Positions 399-19,820 of a DNA stretch of 41,425 bases are shown here, in pieces (the first letter of the stretch is position 1; every line of letters begins with the position of its first letter). The DNA comes from Fimbriimonadaceae bacterium (GTDB lineage Bacteria > Armatimonadota > Fimbriimonadia > Fimbriimonadales > Fimbriimonadaceae). Location: the NCBI GenBank assembly GCA_025455775.1, contig JALOLT010000008.1, forward strand, positions 1 to 41,425, in the 5' to 3' direction. The position numbers and the translations under genes were made by a program. The notes under the pieces are model-generated. The model had not been told where the DNA came from. It made no database searches and worked only from the letters and a program-made list of their open reading frames with translations.

Positions 399-1025
399 AT
401 GTTTCCGGGAATCCTAGGAACCAAAATCGGCATGACCCACGTCTTCGATGGCGAGGGAAGAATGGTGCCGGTAACAGTCATCCAGGCCGGTCCGATGTAC
501 GTTACTCAAATCAAGACGCTCGAAAAGGATGGCTACAACGCAATCCAAGTCGGCTTCGGTGAGATGAGTGATAAGAATCTGACCTGGCCCAAGTACGGCC
601 ACTTGAAGAAGGCAGGGGTGAAGAGCAACCTCCGCCACCTTCGCGAGTTTCGAGTTGATTCGGTCGATGGCTTTAGCCTCGGCCAAGAAATCAAGGTTGA
701 CGTTTTCGAAGCCGGCGAGGCAGTTGATGCCATCGGGATCAGCAAGGGTCGCGGGTTTGCTGGCGGCGTGAAGCGTCACCATTTCCGGGGTCAACACATG
801 ACCCACGGCTACATGACCCACCGACGTCCCCTTTCAAGCGGTGCAACCGGACCCCAACGCGTTTTTAAAGGAACGCGCAAGCCTGGCCACATGGGTACCG
901 ATCAGGTCACCCAATCCGGATTGAAGGTCGTCTCTGTTGATTCTGAGCGCAACCTGGTTCTTCTTTCTGGCAGCGTGCCAGGAGCCAATGGAGCCCTTGT
1001 CACAGTGAATAGGAGCAAGAGGTAA
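399..1025 (+). CDS. rplC: 50S ribosomal protein L3
   Basis: L3 is an early-assembly protein of the large subunit that contacts 23S rRNA near the peptidyl transferase centre. The 208-residue product has the usual bacterial length. It starts with the family hallmark GTKIGMTHVF (residues 7-16) and carries the long conserved extension at about residues 117-170 (GRGFAGGVKRHHF, THGYMTHRRPLSSGAT, KPGHMG). The ATG at 399 gives the canonical N-terminus. It is first in its operon: no rpsJ (S10) precedes it, which is unusual because S10 normally heads this cluster. rplD follows after 6 bases. Identification is secure. Confidence 0.98.
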   Translation: MFPGILGTKIGMTHVFDGEGRMVPVTVIQAGPMYVTQIKTLEKDGYNAIQVGFGEMSDKNLTWPKYGHLKKAGVKSNLRHLREFRVDSVDGFSLGQEIKVDVFEAGEAVDAIGISKGRGFAGGVKRHHFRGQHMTHGYMTHRRPLSSGATGPQRVFKGTRKPGHMGTDQVTQSGLKVVSVDSERNLVLLSGSVPGANGALVTVNRSKR

Positions 1026-1031
1026 GAGATC

Positions 1032-1691
1032 ATGGCTGAAATCGAAATCAAATCTGCCGGCGGTAAAACGGTTGGAAAGCATAAGGTCTCCGAAGCCATC
1101 TCCCTGGCTTCCTCTGCCATCACCGCTTCGGTCGTACACCGAGCTATCGTTGTGGAGCAAGCGAACGAGCGACAAGGAACCCAAAGCGCAAGAACCAGAA
1201 GTGAAGTCAGAGGCGGCGGGCGCAAGCCTTATAAGCAAAAGAAGACTGGTAACGCGCGGCAAGGAACGACAAGAGCTCCCCACTATGCTCATGGTGGCAT
1301 GGCCCTCGCAGTCAAGCCTCGCGACTACAGTAAGAAGATCAACCGCAAAGAGCGCCGACAAGCCATCATCGCAGCCTTCAGCCAAAAGCTGGCGGATGAG
1401 AATGTGGTGGTTGCCGAAGCCATCTCCTTCGCTGCACCTCGCACAAAGGATGCCCTGAATCTTCTGACCGCTCTCGGTGTCGCAGACGTTCGACGAGTCC
1501 TTGTTGTGGTAGCTGAGTACGATGAGAACGTCCTTAAGAGCTTCCGCAACTTGCCAAACGTCGAAGTTCGCACTGCCCCAAGCCGCGACGGAAAAGCCTC
1601 AACCTTCTCAACCCGCGACTTGGTCGTGGCCCATAAGATCGTCATCTCGGCTGATGCGCTGAAGAAGACGGAGGAGGCCTGGACAGCATGA
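1032..1691 (+). CDS. rplD: 50S ribosomal protein L4
   Basis: L4 binds 23S rRNA domain I and lines the exit tunnel; in some bacteria it also represses its own operon. The 219-residue product contains the tunnel-loop signature at residues 60-90 (RGGGRKPYKQKKTGNARQG, then HGGM) and a Rossmann-like C-terminal half with LVVVAEYDENVLKSFRNLPNV. An AGAG-containing purine stretch precedes the ATG. The stop codon overlaps the rplW start (ATGA, 1688-1691), indicating translational coupling. Identification is secure. Confidence 0.98.
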   Translation: MAEIEIKSAGGKTVGKHKVSEAISLASSAITASVVHRAIVVEQANERQGTQSARTRSEVRGGGRKPYKQKKTGNARQGTTRAPHYAHGGMALAVKPRDYSKKINRKERRQAIIAAFSQKLADENVVVAEAISFAAPRTKDALNLLTALGVADVRRVLVVVAEYDENVLKSFRNLPNVEVRTAPSRDGKASTFSTRDLVVAHKIVISADALKKTEEAWTA

Positions 1692-2032
1692 AAGATCCCC
1701 ATACCATCATCATCGCCCCGCGAATCACCCAAAAATCAGCTGCTCTGAGCTACGGGGATCCTCGGATCAAGGACGAAGCTGATCTGCAGCGCCAATACAC
1801 CTTCCTGGTGGCAAAGGATGCTAACAAGATCGAGATCAAAGCCGCTTTCGAAGCCATCTACAATGCTGGCAAGAAAAAGGACGACTTTATCACCGTCACT
1901 CAGGTTCGAACCGTGAAGGTTCTGGGCAAGAAGCGACGAGTCGGGCAAAGAGCTCCCGGCAAGAAGCCAGACCAGAAGAAGGCCATTATCACCCTGGCCA
2001 AAGGCCAGAAGCTAGAGGACTACGGAGTCTAA
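1688..2032 (+). CDS. rplW: 50S ribosomal protein L23
   Basis: L23 sits at the tunnel exit and is a docking site for trigger factor and SRP. The 114-residue protein begins IIAPRITQKSAAL and ends with the rRNA-binding loop region (VRTVKVLGKKRRVGQRAPGK) and KAIITLAKGQKLEDY, as in the family. It is some 15 residues longer than the usual 95-100, mainly through extra residues near 25-35 (SYGDPRIKDEADLQRQ). The start overlaps rplD by four bases and rplB follows after 6 bases. Confidence 0.97.
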   Translation: MKDPHTIIIAPRITQKSAALSYGDPRIKDEADLQRQYTFLVAKDANKIEIKAAFEAIYNAGKKKDDFITVTQVRTVKVLGKKRRVGQRAPGKKPDQKKAIITLAKGQKLEDYGV

Positions 2033-2038
2033 ACGACC

Positions 2039-2881
2039 ATGCCAACTAAAAGACTGAAACCCACATCGCCTGGTCGACGGCACCAAATCGTCAGTACCTA
2101 CTCGGAACTGACGAAAGGGAAAAAGCCGGAAAAGACCCTGCTTGCCCCGATTAAGAAATCTGGCGGACGCAACCACACGGGGCGGATCACCATGGCCAAC
2201 CGCGGCGGCGGAAACAAGCGACGCTATCGCATTATCGACTTCAAGAGATTGAAGGATGGGATGGATGCGACAGTGATGTCGATCGAATATGATCCGAACC
2301 GCACTTGCCGGATCGCTCTGCTGCAATACACCGATGGAACTAAGACCTACATCTTGGCTCCTCGAAACTTGGCAGTTGGAACGGTTGTTCAAAGCGGCCC
2401 TGGATCCGACATTCTGCCTGGCAACTGCCTTGCTCTGCGCAACATCCCTCTCGGTACCTTGGTGCACAATATTGAGCTCCAACCTGGCCGGGGAGGTCAG
2501 ATGGTTCGCAGCGCCGGTGCCAGTGCCCAGGTGATGGCTAAGGAAGGAACTTACGTCACTCTTCGATTGCCGAGCGGTGAAATGCGAATGGTTCATATGG
2601 ACTGCCGAGCCACCATCGGTGAAGTTGGTAACGCGGAGCACGAAAACGAGCAACTTGGGAAAGCCGGAAAGAATCGTGGCCTCGGACGCAAGCCTCACAA
2701 CCGAGGCGTCGTGAAGAGCCCGCGAGACCACCCCCACGGTGGTGGTGAAGCCAAGTCGCCCGTTGGACGAAAGAAAGGTCCGGTCGACCGATGGGGTAAC
2801 AAGGCCCTGGGTCGTCGCACCAGAAAGAACAAGCGGACTGACGGCTTTATCGTTCGCTCTCGACACGTCAAGAGCAAGTAA
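2039..2881 (+). CDS. rplB: 50S ribosomal protein L2
   Basis: L2 is a core large-subunit protein needed for subunit association and peptidyl transferase activity. The 280-residue product matches the family length. Visible hallmarks are [22 protein letters not shown] (written in parts: [19 protein letters not shown]; near residues 42-65), the RNA-binding region around 85-190, and the C-terminal HPHGGGE at about residue 231 with the histidine important for peptidyl transfer, then [11 protein letters not shown]. In most bacteria rpsS, rplV and rpsC follow; here a strong terminator lies 22 bases after the stop and the operon ends. Confidence 0.98.
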
Positions 2882-2935: not shown

Positions 2936-2963
2936 CGTCTTTGGCTGGTGGACTCTCTGAAAA

Positions 2964-2997
2964 CCCTTCCCCCCAGTATTTTTGCTGGGGGGAAGGG
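2964..2997. terminator. Perfect 13-bp C/G-rich hairpin, terminator-like on the minus strand
   Basis: CCCTTCCCCCCAG (2964-2976) is the exact reverse complement of CTGGGGGGAAGGG (2985-2997), with the loop TATTTTTG. On the minus strand it is followed by TTTT, so it could stop transcription coming from the right; on the plus strand there is no T run. A closely similar hairpin lies at 13194-13222, after ppdK. Confidence 0.6.
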
Positions 2998-3044
2998 ATT
3001 GGGATGGGGGGCAGATACTAGCTTGAGCGGCCAATCATCTTCTC

Positions 3045-3141
3045 CCCCGCGCCGCCTGGCCCACGGCCACGCCCGACCGGTTCCTCACTGGGTTGAGCAA
3101 AATCCGAGCACTCGTCCGGTCTGCCCCCGGCCGCCGCGGGG
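3045..3141 (+). repeat. GC-rich structured repeat, form A, copy A1
   Basis: About 97 bp, ends paired as CCCCGCG (3045-3051) and CGCGGGG (3135-3141). Inside, GACCGG (3075-3080) pairs with CCGGTC (3116-3121), and a small hairpin CTCA/TGAG (3084-3097) sits in the loop. The tail AGCCTTCGGCT just after the repeat recurs after A3 and, with its first base changed, after A2. The copy lies between the ribosomal operon terminator and the Rhs fragments, in a stretch with no convincing gene. No known element was recognised. Confidence 0.75.
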
Positions 3142-3282
3142 AAGCCTTCGGCTGGCTTTGGCGTCTTTTGGGGTTTCTTTTTCTGTCCGCTGCGTTCTTT
3201 TGCAGTGTCGTACTCCGAAGAGAGGATCGAGTGATAAGCCTCTCTCTCCGAAGAAGGAGTAAGCACTTGGATCCTGAGGAAA

Positions 3283-3379
3283 CTCGCGCCGTCCGGGGGC
3301 GGGCCCGGAGACCAAGTGGGGAACCTGCCTCCCAAGGTTGGCTCCGGGCGGGCGTGGCTGCGGGCCAGGGCGGCGCGAG
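3283..3379 (-). repeat. GC-rich structured repeat, form B, copy B1
   Basis: A 97-bp unit bounded by the perfect inverted termini CTCGCGCC (3283-3290) and GGCGCGAG (3372-3379). An internal perfect 8-bp stem, GCCCGGAG (3303-3310) with CTCCGGGC (3342-3349), occupies the same place as the GACCGG/CCGGTC stem of form A. Read on the minus strand, B aligns with A in its first half, so it is listed as minus. It differs from B2 at only three positions. The Rhs remnant starts about 30-50 bases to its right. Confidence 0.75.
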
Positions 3380-3408
3380 TCTTTTCTCTCCTTGATATCG
3401 CACCCTGA

Positions 3409-4107
3409 GTTTCGCTTTCCGCACCAGTTCTTCGTGATTCTGGGGCAGCTTATACGCCAGGAATTTCGGAAAGAAGGAATGGTGTCACGAGGTACCAGCA
3501 CCACGGACTGAAGTCAGTGGAGGCGATGTCCAATGTCGCCCAACAGATGGTGGCGAAGAGGGACTATGACGCTTTCGGAAACCTCATCTCTTCTACCGGA
3601 ACGTGGGGTTCAGCCTTTGGCTACGCAGGGGGATTTGGCTACCAGGAAGATGCGACTGGCCTGAAACTCCTCGGCCATCGCTACTACGATTCCACCACCG
3701 GCCGCTTCCTCACCAGAGATCCGATAAAGGATGGAAGGAATTGGTACTCCTATGGGGCAGGCCAGGCGAATCCGGTAACCGGGGCTGATCCAACCGGATT
3801 AATCATTTGGTTTGTCGCCGCCGCCGTTGCCATTGCGGCTTGCGTATACTTTACTGTGAAAGGGGGTGTAGATATTGGACTCTCGGTGCGACGCACGCAA
3901 CTTGTGGCTGAAATACACTGTAATGTGAGAGAAGTATGTAAACGTCATGGAAATTGTCCCCACGAAGTTCAGGATCAGATGCGTAGAGAGGTTGGGCACT
4001 CCATGGAGCCAGTTGGTGATTTAACTGGAGAGGCGATCAAGGACGGACAAGGCCTCTTTAAGGGTCTCTTTGATCTCTTAGATGACGCAAAAAAGGAGCA
4101 CAAATGA
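3409..4107 (+). pseudogene. Rhs/YD-repeat protein, C-terminal fragment with polymorphic tip (cassette 1)
   Basis: The 3' end of a Rhs-type gene. The first usable start is GTG at 3517 (196 residues; ATG alternative at 3526), but Rhs-like reading continues upstream without a stop to 3409 (AAYTPGISERRNGVTRY), so the real N-terminus was lost. The conserved Rhs core is clear: DYDAFGN, FGYAGGFGYQED, LLGHRYYDSTTGRFLTRDP, then NPVTGADPTGL. After it comes a unique tip with one membrane segment (IIWFVAAAVAIAACVYF) and a Cys-containing tail. In intact Rhs proteins the tip is a toxin or effector released after the core; no toxin motif was recognised here. The stop overlaps the next gene (ATGA). It may still be translated from 3517. 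Confidence 0.8.
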
Positions 4108-4820
4108 AGAAGGAGAGATCAAACTTCCCCAAGAAGAGAAGTCCTTTTGAAATAGGGTTCTGGATACTTGTTATATCGACGGTTCTCCTTGGGCCAATCC
4201 TCTTTATAGTGCTGATGCAAGCGGAACACTCGCAGTGGGAGTCGCACTGGGCACACAGGCCAGTGATAGCTAACACGGGCGTAGCGAGTAAATTGGCAGA
4301 GTTGCCTTGGCCGGAGGAGCCCCCTGGTCTGTTAGTGACAGAAGACAGAATCGGGCTAGATTACCTTTCGTGGGAAGAGCTTAAGTCCCTTGAAATTAGA
4401 AACTTTCAAGTGAATTCGTTAGTGGCAACTCGGATGTGCCTACTTTATGTGACGCCTAACAATCATGTGCCGGATCGTCTTTTCTCTGTTACGGTTCGTG
4501 GGAAGGCTGGCCCAAGCCCTAAGATTCGAGGAGGGGGAAAGGTATTGGACGTGAGGGGTTATTCAAAGTTCCTGGAAATACTAGATGCGGCGATGGGATT
4601 GAAGAGGGGTGAGCAACAGTCGTTTTCGAACATATTCGAGTACAAGAGCAGGGTGAAGAATCTTACAAGTTCTCGCAAAGCATCAACCTTCAAGCTGAGC
4701 TCGATCAGAAGTACCGATGGTAAGTCCGTTCTGCCGCCGGAGCTGGATTCAAGCCTTGCTCAAATTAGGGTTTTTCGCATCAAAGAAGGCTATCAACATT
4801 CGTGGGTGAACGTGGAGTAG
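4104..4820 (+). CDS. Membrane-anchored protein following Rhs cassette 1
   Basis: 238 residues, no family recognised. A basic N-terminus (KKERSNFPKKR) is followed by one clear membrane helix (FWILVISTVLLGPILFIVLM, residues 18-37) and a soluble, presumably extracytoplasmic domain. It overlaps the cassette 1 stop by four bases (ATGA), so the two are translationally coupled. By position it is where an immunity or partner protein of an Rhs tip would be; that role is inference from context only. AT content is visibly higher than in the flanking core genes, fitting a mobile cassette. Confidence 0.7.
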   Translation: MKKERSNFPKKRSPFEIGFWILVISTVLLGPILFIVLMQAEHSQWESHWAHRPVIANTGVASKLAELPWPEEPPGLLVTEDRIGLDYLSWEELKSLEIRNFQVNSLVATRMCLLYVTPNNHVPDRLFSVTVRGKAGPSPKIRGGGKVLDVRGYSKFLEILDAAMGLKRGEQQSFSNIFEYKSRVKNLTSSRKASTFKLSSIRSTDGKSVLPPELDSSLAQIRVFRIKEGYQHSWVNVE

Positions 4821-4823
4821 GAT

Positions 4824-5615
4824 TTGCCAGGTGCTTATGAACTTAATTGCGTATTAGTGCGAATGAGGCCAAAAGTACGATGGACAGTCAGGCAGATCGA
4901 AGGGTCAGCCTTTGGCTACGCGGGAGGGTTTGGCTACCAGGAAGACGCGTCGGGGCTCAAACTCCTCGGCCATCGCTACTATGACTCTTCCACCGGCCGC
5001 TTCCTGACCAGAGATCCGATAAAGGATGGCAGGAATTGGAACTCCTACGGCGCAGGCGAGGGTAACCCGATCTCGGGAGTAGATCCGACTGGACTCAGGT
5101 GGCATGATCCAGTTCAAGTGCAGGTAGATCCCAATTTTCATGGAACTGTGATTGCATTTGGTGACTTTTCATGGATGAAGGGTGATAGCTGGCGAGATGT
5201 AGAGGTTCCAGCCGGGTATGTCACCGATCCTCGCATGGATGTTGATCTGATCATCGTAGTAAGCAAGTCTGGGGTCGCCAAAGTATATTTCTTACCGGGA
5301 CGACTTGGAGGAGCGTCTTCGTATCGATTAGATTCGAAAGGTGTCGTGCGCTCTGGAGGAACAAATGGGGCTGCTGGACAAGCCCACCCCGGAGGAATTA
5401 ACTCTTGGATACACTGGTGGTTTAAGGCGATGGAAGACGCTCTCAATACTGGGTTTCCAAAAGAGTACGAACCTCGTCCAAATGAGGTTTGTAGGGTTCC
5501 GCGTGCACCTTACTATTGGCCTAATCTCTTCCCTAGCTTCCTCTTTAATCCTGTGCTCGGCCAGAACGCCAAGCCACGAAGTGAGTATCGTGTGAAGCCA
5601 TGGTTGAGTTTATAA
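4824..5615 (+). CDS. Rhs/YD-repeat core fragment with a different tip (cassette 2)
   Basis: 263 residues from a TTG at 4824 (ATG alternative at 4863). From about residue 27 it repeats the Rhs core of cassette 1 nearly word for word (SAFGYAGGFGYQED, LLGHRYYDSSTGRFLTRDP, GVDPTGL), with strong nucleotide similarity between about 4902 and 5095. The similarity starts abruptly at 4902; upstream sequence is unrelated, so the N-terminal part of the original Rhs protein is missing. The tip (about residues 92-263) is unlike that of cassette 1 and ends in an aromatic- and proline-rich segment; no toxin family was recognised. Its end overlaps the next gene by 16 bases. Confidence 0.75.
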   Translation: MPGAYELNCVLVRMRPKVRWTVRQIEGSAFGYAGGFGYQEDASGLKLLGHRYYDSSTGRFLTRDPIKDGRNWNSYGAGEGNPISGVDPTGLRWHDPVQVQVDPNFHGTVIAFGDFSWMKGDSWRDVEVPAGYVTDPRMDVDLIIVVSKSGVAKVYFLPGRLGGASSYRLDSKGVVRSGGTNGAAGQAHPGGINSWIHWWFKAMEDALNTGFPKEYEPRPNEVCRVPRAPYYWPNLFPSFLFNPVLGQNAKPRSEYRVKPWLSL

Positions 5616-5899
5616 TCCATATATTTGAGTGGAATCTCTTTGCCCCGGTACTATTCCTCTTTCCACTTTGGGGAGTTGTTTTCTTTCTTATTGGAGTACT
5701 CCGTTCGACCGCAGGAAAAGGACTCAAGTGGAAGAGTCTTGCCTACATCCTGATCTGCCTTCCATACGGTTTATCGATAGACCAACTCCCACATCCGATT
5801 ATCACCTTGCTTTACCTCTTCGTTTCCCCATTGTTAGCCTTGCTGTTGATTCTGTCTATCAATAACATAGCTATCTTTTGGAGAGCACCTCATGACTAG
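5600..5899 (+). CDS. Small membrane protein following Rhs cassette 2
   Basis: 99 residues, mostly hydrophobic, with about three membrane segments (FAPVLFLFPLWGVVFFLIGVL; LAYILICLPYGL; IITLLYLFVSPLLALLLILS, each quoted in part). It starts inside the end of cassette 2 (16-base overlap), mirroring the coupling of cassette 1 with its follower. An immunity or partner role for the cassette 2 tip is a positional inference. No family recognised. Confidence 0.6.
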   Translation: MVEFIIHIFEWNLFAPVLFLFPLWGVVFFLIGVLRSTAGKGLKWKSLAYILICLPYGLSIDQLPHPIITLLYLFVSPLLALLLILSINNIAIFWRAPHD

Positions 5900-6119
5900 C
5901 ATAATTTCTGCACTAGTATTGGATATCAATCTCCTGCCAAGTTGGCGTAATAATGTTTGAGAGGTTGAGGCGGCAATGTTATCTACTAGGCGACCGCCTA
6001 TGCCGAGCTTTCGAAAATTGACTCTGGCCTTCCCGACTCAAGTCTGGGAAATCCAACTGGAAAACCAACTCTGAGTTCAACAACGCACTTCGAGAAGCTA
6101 GAACGATATCTGAGGAAAG

Positions 6120-6317
6120 ATGGAAAAACCTAAGAGCCAGGAGCTAACGGATTTCATTCCCTTTCAAATGAGGGTACGGGCCATCGTGTGTCTTATTTTT
6201 TGTGTTCTTTGCCTAATCGTCTTCGTGCATTCATCGGTTACCTTTGATAGGGCGTTGACTAGAGAGCAACGGGCTCTCGATGAGGTAGAAGAGTTGATGA
6301 AGAGATCATCTAGTTAA
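6120..6317 (+). CDS. Small single-pass membrane protein, unknown
   Basis: 65 residues with a good RBS (TGAGGAAAG directly before the ATG). One membrane helix (AIVCLIFCVLCLIVFVHSSV, about residues 22-41) is followed by a charged, helix-prone tail rich in Glu and Arg. It lies 220 bases after the previous small membrane gene, in the accessory island; the 220-base gap shows nothing recognisable. A hairpin (CCAGTCCG/CGGTCTGG, one mismatch) lies at 6319-6342, right after the stop, without a T run. Confidence 0.5.
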   Translation: MEKPKSQELTDFIPFQMRVRAIVCLIFCVLCLIVFVHSSVTFDRALTREQRALDEVEELMKRSSS

Positions 6318-6414
6318 ACCAGTCCGGATTATCACGGTCTGGACACACTAGGTTCGAACTGCTCCCCTAAATCTGGCCCTTCCCAAGTGCTTGAAACCTT
6401 CAGATCGGCAGTTG

Positions 6415-6588
6415 CCCAAAGGACAAGGAAAGCGATGGGCCGAAGGTGAGGTACTTGAGATTCTCAAATAGGTTGAGGGATGCGGGTCCATAGCGGCCCT
6501 TGCCCGGGCTCGCGGAATCACCGACCAGACCACCTGCCGATGGGGCGACGAGTATGCCGGGATGCTGGCCAGCGAGCTCAAACAACTC
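6415..6588 (+). pseudogene. IS3-family OrfA (HTH_Tnp_1) transposase remnant
   Basis: Reading from 6415 gives PKGQGKRWAEGEVLEILK, an in-frame TAG at 6469-6471, then VEGCGSIAALARARGITDQ, TTCRWGDEYAGML and ASELKQL. This matches the helix-turn-helix OrfA of IS3-type elements (RW..EE...IL..V..G.S...AR..GI..QT..RW..EYGGM....KRL). The frame is broken by the stop and ends three to four bases before structured repeat A2, where the usual leucine-zipper part should begin. No OrfB or terminal inverted repeats were seen. It is a dead relic. Confidence 0.75.
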
Positions 6589-6591
6589 CGC

Positions 6592-6688
6592 GCGCCGCCG
6601 GGCCCACGGCCACGCCCGACCGGTTCCCCATTTGGGTGAGCGAAATTGGAGCACTCGTCCGGTCTGCCCCCGTGCGGCGGGGGGGGGG
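6592..6688 (+). repeat. GC-rich structured repeat, form A, copy A2
   Basis: Very similar to A3. GCGCCG (6592-6597) faces CGGCGG (6675-6680), CACGG (6605-6609) pairs with CCGTG (6670-6674) and GACCGG (6618-6623) with CCGGTC (6659-6664). The 3' end has an uninterrupted run of ten G (6679-6688), which may vary in length or be a sequencing weak point. It begins immediately after the truncated OrfA reading frame. Confidence 0.75.
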
Positions 6689-6804
6689 CCTTCGGCTGGC
6701 TCTAATATTTCGTTGCTGCAACTGGGGTGATGCTTTCTTCAGTTTCCCCTCGCATCCGGTTGGATCTTTGAAGGGATAATCCCTTTAGAAAAGTCAGCGG
6801 CTCC

Positions 6805-6893
6805 GCGCCGCCGGGCCCACGGCCACACCCGACCGGTTCCTCACTTGGGTGAGCGAAATTGGAGCACTCGTCCGGTCTGCCCCCGTGCGGCGC
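6805..6893 (+). repeat. GC-rich structured repeat, form A, copy A3
   Basis: The best-formed A copy (89 bp). Nested stems: GCGCCG (6805-6810) with CGGCGC (6888-6893), CACGG (6818-6822) with CCGTG (6883-6887), GACCGG (6831-6836) with CCGGTC (6872-6877), and inside the last a perfect hairpin CTCAC/GTGAG with loop TTGG (6840-6853). The tail AGCCTTCGGCTGG follows. The spacer between A2 and A3 (about 115 bp) holds only a small palindrome, AAGGGAT/ATCCCTT, at 6771-6785. Confidence 0.78.
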
Positions 6894-6919
6894 AGGGGAG
6901 CCTTCGGCTGGTTTGGCTT

Positions 6920-7100
6920 GGGCGTGAGTAGGGCTCGCTCGTTTCTCTTGGATTTCGCTTCTTGCTTGCTGTCAGAAGCTAGGAGAAGGACTGGAGCCTT
7001 TGGCTGGTTTGGGCGTGAGTAGGGCTCTCTCGTTTCTCTTGGACTTCGCTTCTTGCTTGCTGTCAGAAGCTAGGAGAAGGACTGGAGCCTTTGGCTGGCT
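6920..7100 (+). repeat. Tandem direct duplication, two 91-bp units
   Basis: The unit beginning GGGCGTGAGTAGGGCT at 6920 is repeated at 7011 with a 91-bp period. I see two substitutions in the body and a diverged last few bases. Each unit ends with GAGCCTTTGGCTGG, a variant of the tail that follows the A repeats, so the duplication seems to have used that short homology. No gene is supported in it. Confidence 0.85.
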
Positions 7101-7182
7101 GGGTACTGCTGGTTTCGGTGCTTCTTTTCGGATCTCCCTAAACTCCGTTGGAGTCTGGCTAGAATCGAATTCTGAAGGAGGA

Positions 7183-7279
7183 CTCGCGCCGGCCGGGGGC
7201 GGGCCCGGAGACCAAGTGGGGAACCTGCCACCCAAGGTCGGCTCCGGGCGGGCGTGGCTGCGGGCCAGGGCGGCGCGAG
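7183..7279 (-). repeat. GC-rich structured repeat, form B, copy B2
   Basis: 97 bp, the same length as B1 and different at three positions only. Termini CTCGCGCC (7183-7190) and GGCGCGAG (7272-7279); internal stem GCCCGGAG (7203-7210) with CTCCGGGC (7242-7249). As with B1, an Rhs-like remnant starts a short distance to the right, so the B-Rhs junction occurs twice. Confidence 0.75.
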
Positions 7280-7323
7280 TTCCGTTCTTTCTCCCTTCGC
7301 AGCCAGCCAGCGGAGATTCCCCT

Positions 7324-19673: not shown

Positions 19674-19820
19674 CTCGGGAGATGCCTGCCCCGCCTCCCC
19701 GAGGCCACGCCCTCCCCTCCGCTCCGCTTCGGGGCTGCGCCTCGGCAGGGCAGGTGAGTTTGATCAGGTCACCAAGACGCGATCGGACAGGCCTACACGG
19801 GGCTGCCTCTTTTGAGACAA
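19646..19820. repeat. Inverted-repeat-bounded, GC-rich palindromic segment
   Basis: The terminator arm at 19646-19667 recurs as an imperfect reverse complement at 19799-19820 (19 of 22 positions). Between them is a nested palindrome: CCTGCCC (19685-19691) with GGGCAGG (19748-19754), and CCGAGGC (19699-19705) with GCCTCGG (19739-19745). It lies in the 457-base gene-free stretch 19611-20067. It could be a small non-autonomous element or simply back-to-back terminators; no target duplication was found. The remainder up to 20067 shows nothing recognisable. Confidence 0.55.

What the first reader, a model, noticed from the sequence alone, without database searches (positions are those of the whole stretch)
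3045..7279. Family of GC-rich structured repeats (forms A and B) with compensating stem changes
Five copies occur within 4.3 kb: A1, A2, A3 on the plus strand and B1, B2 on the minus. All share a closing stem, an internal stem at the same place and, in A, a nested hairpin. The internal stem is GACCGG/CCGGTC in A but GCCCGGAG/CTCCGGGC in B: both sides change yet pairing is kept, which argues for selection on structure. B1 and B2 differ at three of 97 positions. I do not recognise it as a known element. It could be a non-coding RNA, a hairpin mobile element of the REP type, or a regulatory module.
Basis: partly seen in the sequence, partly recalled or inferred. Interest (0 to 1): 0.78.

Follow-up and report, generated by a model that had tools for sequence, protein, structure and literature searches.

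The report
Two-stem paired repeats in Armatimonadota
The five GC-rich copies belong to a family of about 125 scattered two-stem repeats in this bacterium, found in only one family of Armatimonadota; the stems change while staying paired, an inner core hardly changes, and the repeats behave like known extragenic palindromes but lack their tag and their transposase.

Summary
A1, B1, A2, A3 and B2 are real. Two covariance models find 125 copies in the 3 Mb genome, plus a diverged form D, with one copy at window 19680-19755. All share a variable closing stem, the core GCCC-NNN-GCC-NNN-CCC, a variable inner hairpin, and GCCC before the stem closes. Both stems covary strongly: 0.633 against 0.181 shuffled and at most 0.161 slid, on 88 copies from other genomes. 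Core cytosines are 98-100% invariant there. Within Armatimonadota the family is confined to one bacterial family (six genera; 13 of 291 genomes). Copies lie between genes, in either orientation, often as convergent pairs (27 against 4 and 4). This resembles REP/BIME repeats, but three defining features fail: size and fold, GTAG/CGTC tag, RAYT transposase (absent here and in 11 of 13 carriers). Best reading: a non-autonomous DNA-hairpin repeat family with an unknown mobiliser. Some copies seem kept by selection: at two sites shared by related species the core is kept while the inner stem diverged. A structured RNA remains the main rival.

The parts
3046..3153 (+). copy A1. Closing stem CCCGCGCCG../..CGGGG; core GCCCACGGCCACGCCC 3059-3074; inner stem 3075-3080 with 3116-3121; 3' core GCCC 3123-3126
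3144..3281 (.). spacer of the A1-B1 composite (about 335 bp in all); the same spacer recurs in several other A-B composites
3282..3380 (-). copy B1, facing A1 (convergent pair)
6589..6697 (+). copy A2
6802..6909 (+). copy A3
6914..7095 (+). two tandem 91-bp units (97% alike) in the A3-B2 spacer
7182..7280 (-). copy B2, facing A3
   Evidence: weak with R2 (E 0.098); nhmmer E 3e-15 with 14 other full copies whose closing stems vary and stay paired
3517..4107 (+). orphan end of an rhs gene next to A1-B1; the whole module (A, spacer, B, rhs end) recurs in whole or in part on at least seven other contigs
   Evidence: TIGR03696, E 2.5e-15
4824..5615 (+). second orphan rhs end, between the two repeat clusters
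   Evidence: TIGR03696, E 9e-15

Best explanation
This is a family of dispersed, non-autonomous extragenic DNA repeats that act at the DNA level as folded hairpins. Each unit (64-112 nt) has a closing stem of about 8-16 pairs, an almost invariant GC core on both sides of the junction, and an inner hairpin. Shown: high copy number, near-identical units in unrelated flanks, unit borders at the closing stem, covariation of both stems, convergent pairing, patchy distribution within one bacterial family, and keeping or decay of copies at shared sites in related species. Inferred: an enzyme not identified here recognises the shape plus the core on an extruded or single strand and copies or moves the unit, settling copies between genes near stop codons. 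Facing copies form BIME-like pairs. Some copies have since been kept by selection, perhaps as two-way gene-end hairpins. In the window the A1-B1 pair has also been spread by recombination as part of an rhs-orphan module.
For: 125 copies in the own genome. A copies about 76-100% alike in unrelated flanks, the match ending near the closing stem. Closing stem covaries, and both stems covary in 88 copies of other genomes. Core C positions 98-100% invariant with variable linkers. Copy number varies from 0 to over 100 between genera, and few sites are shared between genera. Convergent pairs: 27 against 4 divergent and 4 same-strand, and 13 to 1 among model hits. Orientation to genes is unbiased, and copies sit near stop codons while mostly avoiding about 50 nt before starts. 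In stems, G-T (16) and A-C (11) faults are about equal and rare against 1211 Watson-Crick pairs, so no strand shows the G-U excess usual in RNA. No recurring protein gene of mobile type beside copies except rhs ends.
Against: No transposition event or empty site was found, and no target-site duplication (12 cases of 4 nt or more against 9.2 +/- 2.8 expected). The mobiliser is unknown: RAYT and reverse transcriptase are absent from the genome. Copies persist at the same site in three species of one genus with the core kept (core5 17/19, core3 9/9, inner stem only 10/20, upstream flank 13/28), which points to a function beyond selfish spread. Low G-T counts could also follow from very GC-rich stems.
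Confidence: 0.55

Rival explanations
1. A structured RNA, probably the G-rich strand: closing stem, GGGC, inner hairpin framed by GA/GA, then GGG-NNN-GGC-NNN-GGGC. Copies would act in gene ends or as small RNAs, for example by stopping transcription, guarding 3' ends or binding a protein.
For: Strong covariation plus an invariant junction core is the usual mark of a structured RNA. Core kept and inner stem swapped at orthologous sites in three species. Many copies lie 2-50 nt after a stop codon.
Against: No Rfam family at gathering score, nothing better than E 0.6 at a loose threshold. Orientation unbiased to the flanking genes (21 against 18, and 8 against 6). Some 19 of 90 copies lie between divergent genes. 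Few G-U pairs on either strand. No RNA data here.
Confidence: 0.27
2. A binding site for a DNA-binding or chromosome-organising protein, or a quadruplex-duplex DNA structure on the G-rich strand, kept by selection and spread by recombination.
For: Invariant GGGC / GGG / GGC / GGGC runs with free 3-nt linkers. Insensitive to transcription direction. Kept at shared sites.
Against: Stem-pair changes would not be needed for a plain double-strand site. Most genera of the same bacterial family lack it. No quadruplex was computed or measured.
Confidence: 0.12
3. Members of the known REP family, mobilised by a RAYT.
For: Extragenic, high copy, convergent pairs like BIMEs (compare PMC8266576, PMC3733652).
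Against: Y1_Tnp (PF01797) absent from the own genome and from 11 of 13 carrier genomes, present in 9 of 13 non-carriers tested. GTAG tag in 1 and CGTC in 4 of 99 copies. Units two to three times as long, with two stems and a fixed core.
Confidence: 0.03
4. Only copies inside rhs-orphan modules multiplied by segmental duplication, with no independent family.
For: The 335-bp A-B composite plus rhs end recurs as a unit of up to 850 bp on at least seven other contigs.
Against: Most of the 125 copies are single units with no rhs fragment near them, and other genera carry the family.
Confidence: 0.03

Closest known systems
REP / BIME elements with RAYT (TnpA-REP) transposases (PMC8266576, PMC3116915)
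   Same: Extragenic, many copies, hairpin-forming, paired in inverse orientation with a variable linker, absent from most relatives
   Different: Longer (64-112 against 20-50 nt), two stems around a fixed GC core, no GTAG tag (1 of 99), no RAYT in the genome or in 11 of 13 carrier genomes
CGTC-tagged REPs (PMC3733652)
   Same: High-copy extragenic palindromes that lack a dedicated transposase; dimers in opposite orientation; more often between convergent or tandem genes
   Different: CGTC tag in only 4 of 99 copies; size and two-stem fold differ; that paper does not mention Armatimonadota
MITE- or ERIC-type intergenic palindromes (from general knowledge)
   Same: About 100 bp, intergenic, structured, non-autonomous
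   Different: No target-site duplication found; closing-stem sequence differs from copy to copy, so no fixed terminal repeat
Riboswitch- or ribozyme-like structured RNAs in Rfam
   Same: Stems covary around an invariant junction
   Different: No Rfam match; over 100 copies in one genome; no strand bias to genes

Membership tests
REP (GTAG/CGTC superfamilies) | short imperfect palindrome of about 20-50 nt | tested here: not met
   64-112 nt, closing stem plus separate inner hairpin and fixed core
REP (GTAG/CGTC superfamilies) | GTAG or CGTC tag at one end | tested here: not met
   GTAG 1/99 and CGTC 4/99 within 8 nt upstream; 0 and 1 downstream
REP (GTAG superfamily) | RAYT / Y1 tyrosine transposase in the genome | tested here: not met
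   PF01797 absent in the own genome and in 11 of 13 carriers
REP / BIME | high copy, extragenic, dispersed | tested here: met
   125 copies, mostly intergenic
BIME | two units in inverse orientation with a variable linker | tested here: met
   27 convergent pairs against 4 and 4 within 600 nt
MITE | target-site duplication and fixed terminal inverted repeats | tested here: not met
   no duplication excess; closing stems differ between copies
Rfam structured RNA | match to a curated family | tested here: not met
   none at gathering score in the window; nothing below E 0.6 in nine loci
Structured RNA (any) | transcript from a fixed strand | not testable with these tools
   no RNA-seq; orientation to genes unbiased, G-U and A-C faults similar
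Retro-element (RT-mobilised) | reverse transcriptase in carrier genomes | tested here: not met
   PF00078 absent in the own genome; 3 of 13 carriers against 4 of 13 others

The most novel reading that the evidence does not exclude
A new class of structured mobile element or RNA: a two-stem unit with an invariant GGGC/GGG/GGC/GGGC junction (possibly a quadruplex-duplex fold) that is dispersed by an enzyme unrelated to RAYTs and then taken into use as a paired gene-end element in one lineage of Armatimonadota.
Probability: 0.2. Interest if true: 0.82.

Novelty: new variant of a known kind. Interest (0 to 1): 0.62.

Why it matters
REP-like repeats are explained mainly by RAYT transposases. A well-supported, structurally richer family that is common where RAYTs are missing makes the open question of how tag-less repeats spread directly testable. 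The swap of paired bases around an unchanging core at the same site in related species also gives a clean system to ask whether such repeats are selfish, useful, or both.

Tried and rejected
Rfam at gathering score and at E-value threshold: nothing.

tRNA origin of the 73-75 nt hits: ARAGORN found none; they proved to be the short form C.

Exact A-core pattern in GTDB: no match. Looser core pattern: mostly chance hits in coding DNA; only two loci, both of one MAG (Armatimonadetes SZAS-8), were real. That MAG turned out to be G023, in the same bacterial family.

RAYT and reverse transcriptase as mobilisers: rejected. Target-site duplication: no excess. An autonomous copy with a gene next to it: only rhs ends (and an unrelated prepilin-like family) recur. 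Shared sites between genera: almost none, with a few possible.

A quadruplex was considered from the G-run pattern only; it was not computed because the inner hairpin is too long a loop for the folding program. Model R1 was biased to forms A and B, so R2 was built with truncated inner stems to reach other genera; its sequences were shortened for that purpose only. Literature searches found no report for Armatimonadota.

Full report
The five copies are real. Searches show A1, A2 and A3 on the plus strand and B1 and B2 on the minus strand at the stated places. A profile of B also hits the A copies, so the two forms are homologous. Folded alone, A copies are no more stable than shuffles while B copies are, so single folds do not settle the matter.

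The family is large. BLAST with B2 and A3 found dozens of copies in the genome. A covariance model from 26 copies (R1) found 105 places at E <= 0.01, including a third, short form C of 73-75 nt. A second model built on core and stem bases of all forms (R2) also found 105, partly others; the union is 125. The window holds five of these. It also has one copy of a further diverged form D at 19680-19755, weak with R2 (E 0.098) but strongly like 14 other full copies, nearly all with their own paired closing stem.

Anatomy on the C-rich strand: closing stem P1, GCCC-NNN-GCC-NNN-CCC, inner hairpin P3, (Y)GCCC, P1'. In 88 copies from other genomes the cytosines of CCC, CC, CCC and the 3' CCC are 98-100% invariant, their Gs 95-99%, and the linkers vary. 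These copies were found by a model that rewards the core, so the figure is somewhat inflated. P1 and P3 change freely but stay paired: 76.6% of cells paired against 49.0% shuffled, covariation score 0.633 against 0.181 shuffled and at most 0.161 when slid. In the own genome, closing stems pair far better with their own partner than with swapped ones (z -13; 18 strongly diverged stems: -25.4 against -14.5 kcal/mol).

Distribution: the genome belongs to Armatimonadota. Its relative G023 is the GenBank MAG 'Armatimonadetes bacterium SZAS-8', reported by the tool as the same family but another genus. R2 finds 43 copies there, 21 in G025, 10 in G001 and few elsewhere. Of 291 genomes of the phylum, 13 match, all in the same bacterial family, six genera (that call scored only 18 candidates per genome, so its counts are low).

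Position: copies lie between genes of all arrangements (32 convergent, 39 tandem, 19 divergent among 90 with both neighbours called by a simple codon-based gene finder). Between tandem genes orientation is unbiased (21 against 18). Distances to stop codons go down to a few bases, while about 50 nt before start codons are mostly avoided. G023 shows a similar picture. Neighbouring cores within 600 nt are convergent 27 times, divergent 4 times and same-strand 4 times, like BIMEs. In the own genome 38 of 99 copies have a run of four or more T within 14 nt upstream on the C-rich strand, against 4-7 for the other flank and base combinations. This is not so in other genomes (12, 11, 11, 3 of 68).

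In the window, A1-spacer-B1 is a 335-bp composite whose spacer recurs elsewhere. It is part of a module of up to 850 bp with the end of an rhs gene that occurs on at least seven other contigs. So part of the local clustering is due to rhs-orphan recombination.

Is it mobile or kept? A copies at unrelated places are about 76-100% alike and the match ends near the closing stem, and copy number differs from 0 to over 100 between genera. No empty site or target duplication was seen. Within one genus (G168, G169, G174) the same sites carry copies. At one site G168 and G174 share 17/19 and 9/9 core bases, but only 10/20 of the inner stem, 13/28 upstream and 20/50 downstream. At a second site the core is 16/19 and 9/9, inner stem 9/19, upstream 22/60, but downstream 52/59, close to a conserved gene. 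So the core is constrained while the stems are remade. At another site G169 has lost the inner hairpin and 3' core but kept the closing stem.

Mobiliser: the RAYT domain is absent from the own genome and from 11 of 13 carriers, yet present in 9 of 13 non-carriers of the same family. Reverse transcriptase shows no link. No gene of mobile type other than rhs ends recurs beside copies.

RNA or DNA? Stem faults are rare and G-T (16) about equals A-C (11) in P1, and 0 against 4 in P3, so neither strand shows the G-U pairs expected of an evolving RNA. With unbiased orientation this favours a DNA-level structure, but modestly. The G-rich strand would carry GGGC, GGG, GGC and GGGC runs around the inner hairpin, which could form a quadruplex-duplex fold; this is inference from the pattern alone.

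Verdict: a real, lineage-restricted family of two-stem extragenic repeats that works like REP/BIME elements but is not a member of the REP family by size, tag and transposase. It is the same broad kind as CGTC-REPs in having no known transposase (PMC3733652). No earlier description was found in the papers searched.

Noticed in passing
window 399-2881: rplC-rplD-rplW-rplB (order inferred from ORF sizes; only rplB tested by Pfam) end at rplB, followed by an intrinsic terminator (about 2905-2935) and the rhs-orphan region; no rpsS follows in the window, so the S10 operon seems split here.
   Followed up: partly
window 3517-5615: Two orphan rhs core ends (TIGR03696) with different C-terminal tails; similar ends lie on at least seven other contigs.
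   Followed up: partly
window 2955-3011: Another palindrome, CCCAGTATTTTTGCTGGG, with flanks seen again near A copies on contigs C32 and C132; perhaps a second small repeat family or a terminator.
   Followed up: partly
window 6914-7095: Tandem 91-bp repeat (two copies, 97% alike) ending in GCCTTTGGCTGG, like the end of the A copies.
   Followed up: no
own genome, upstream of copies: 38 of 99 copies have a T run just upstream on the C-rich strand (typically TTTTTCG); not seen in other genera. Unexplained.
   Followed up: partly
L407 (G169 C3): Orthologous copy that lost exactly the inner hairpin and 3' core, leaving a simple hairpin a few nt after a stop codon.
   Followed up: yes
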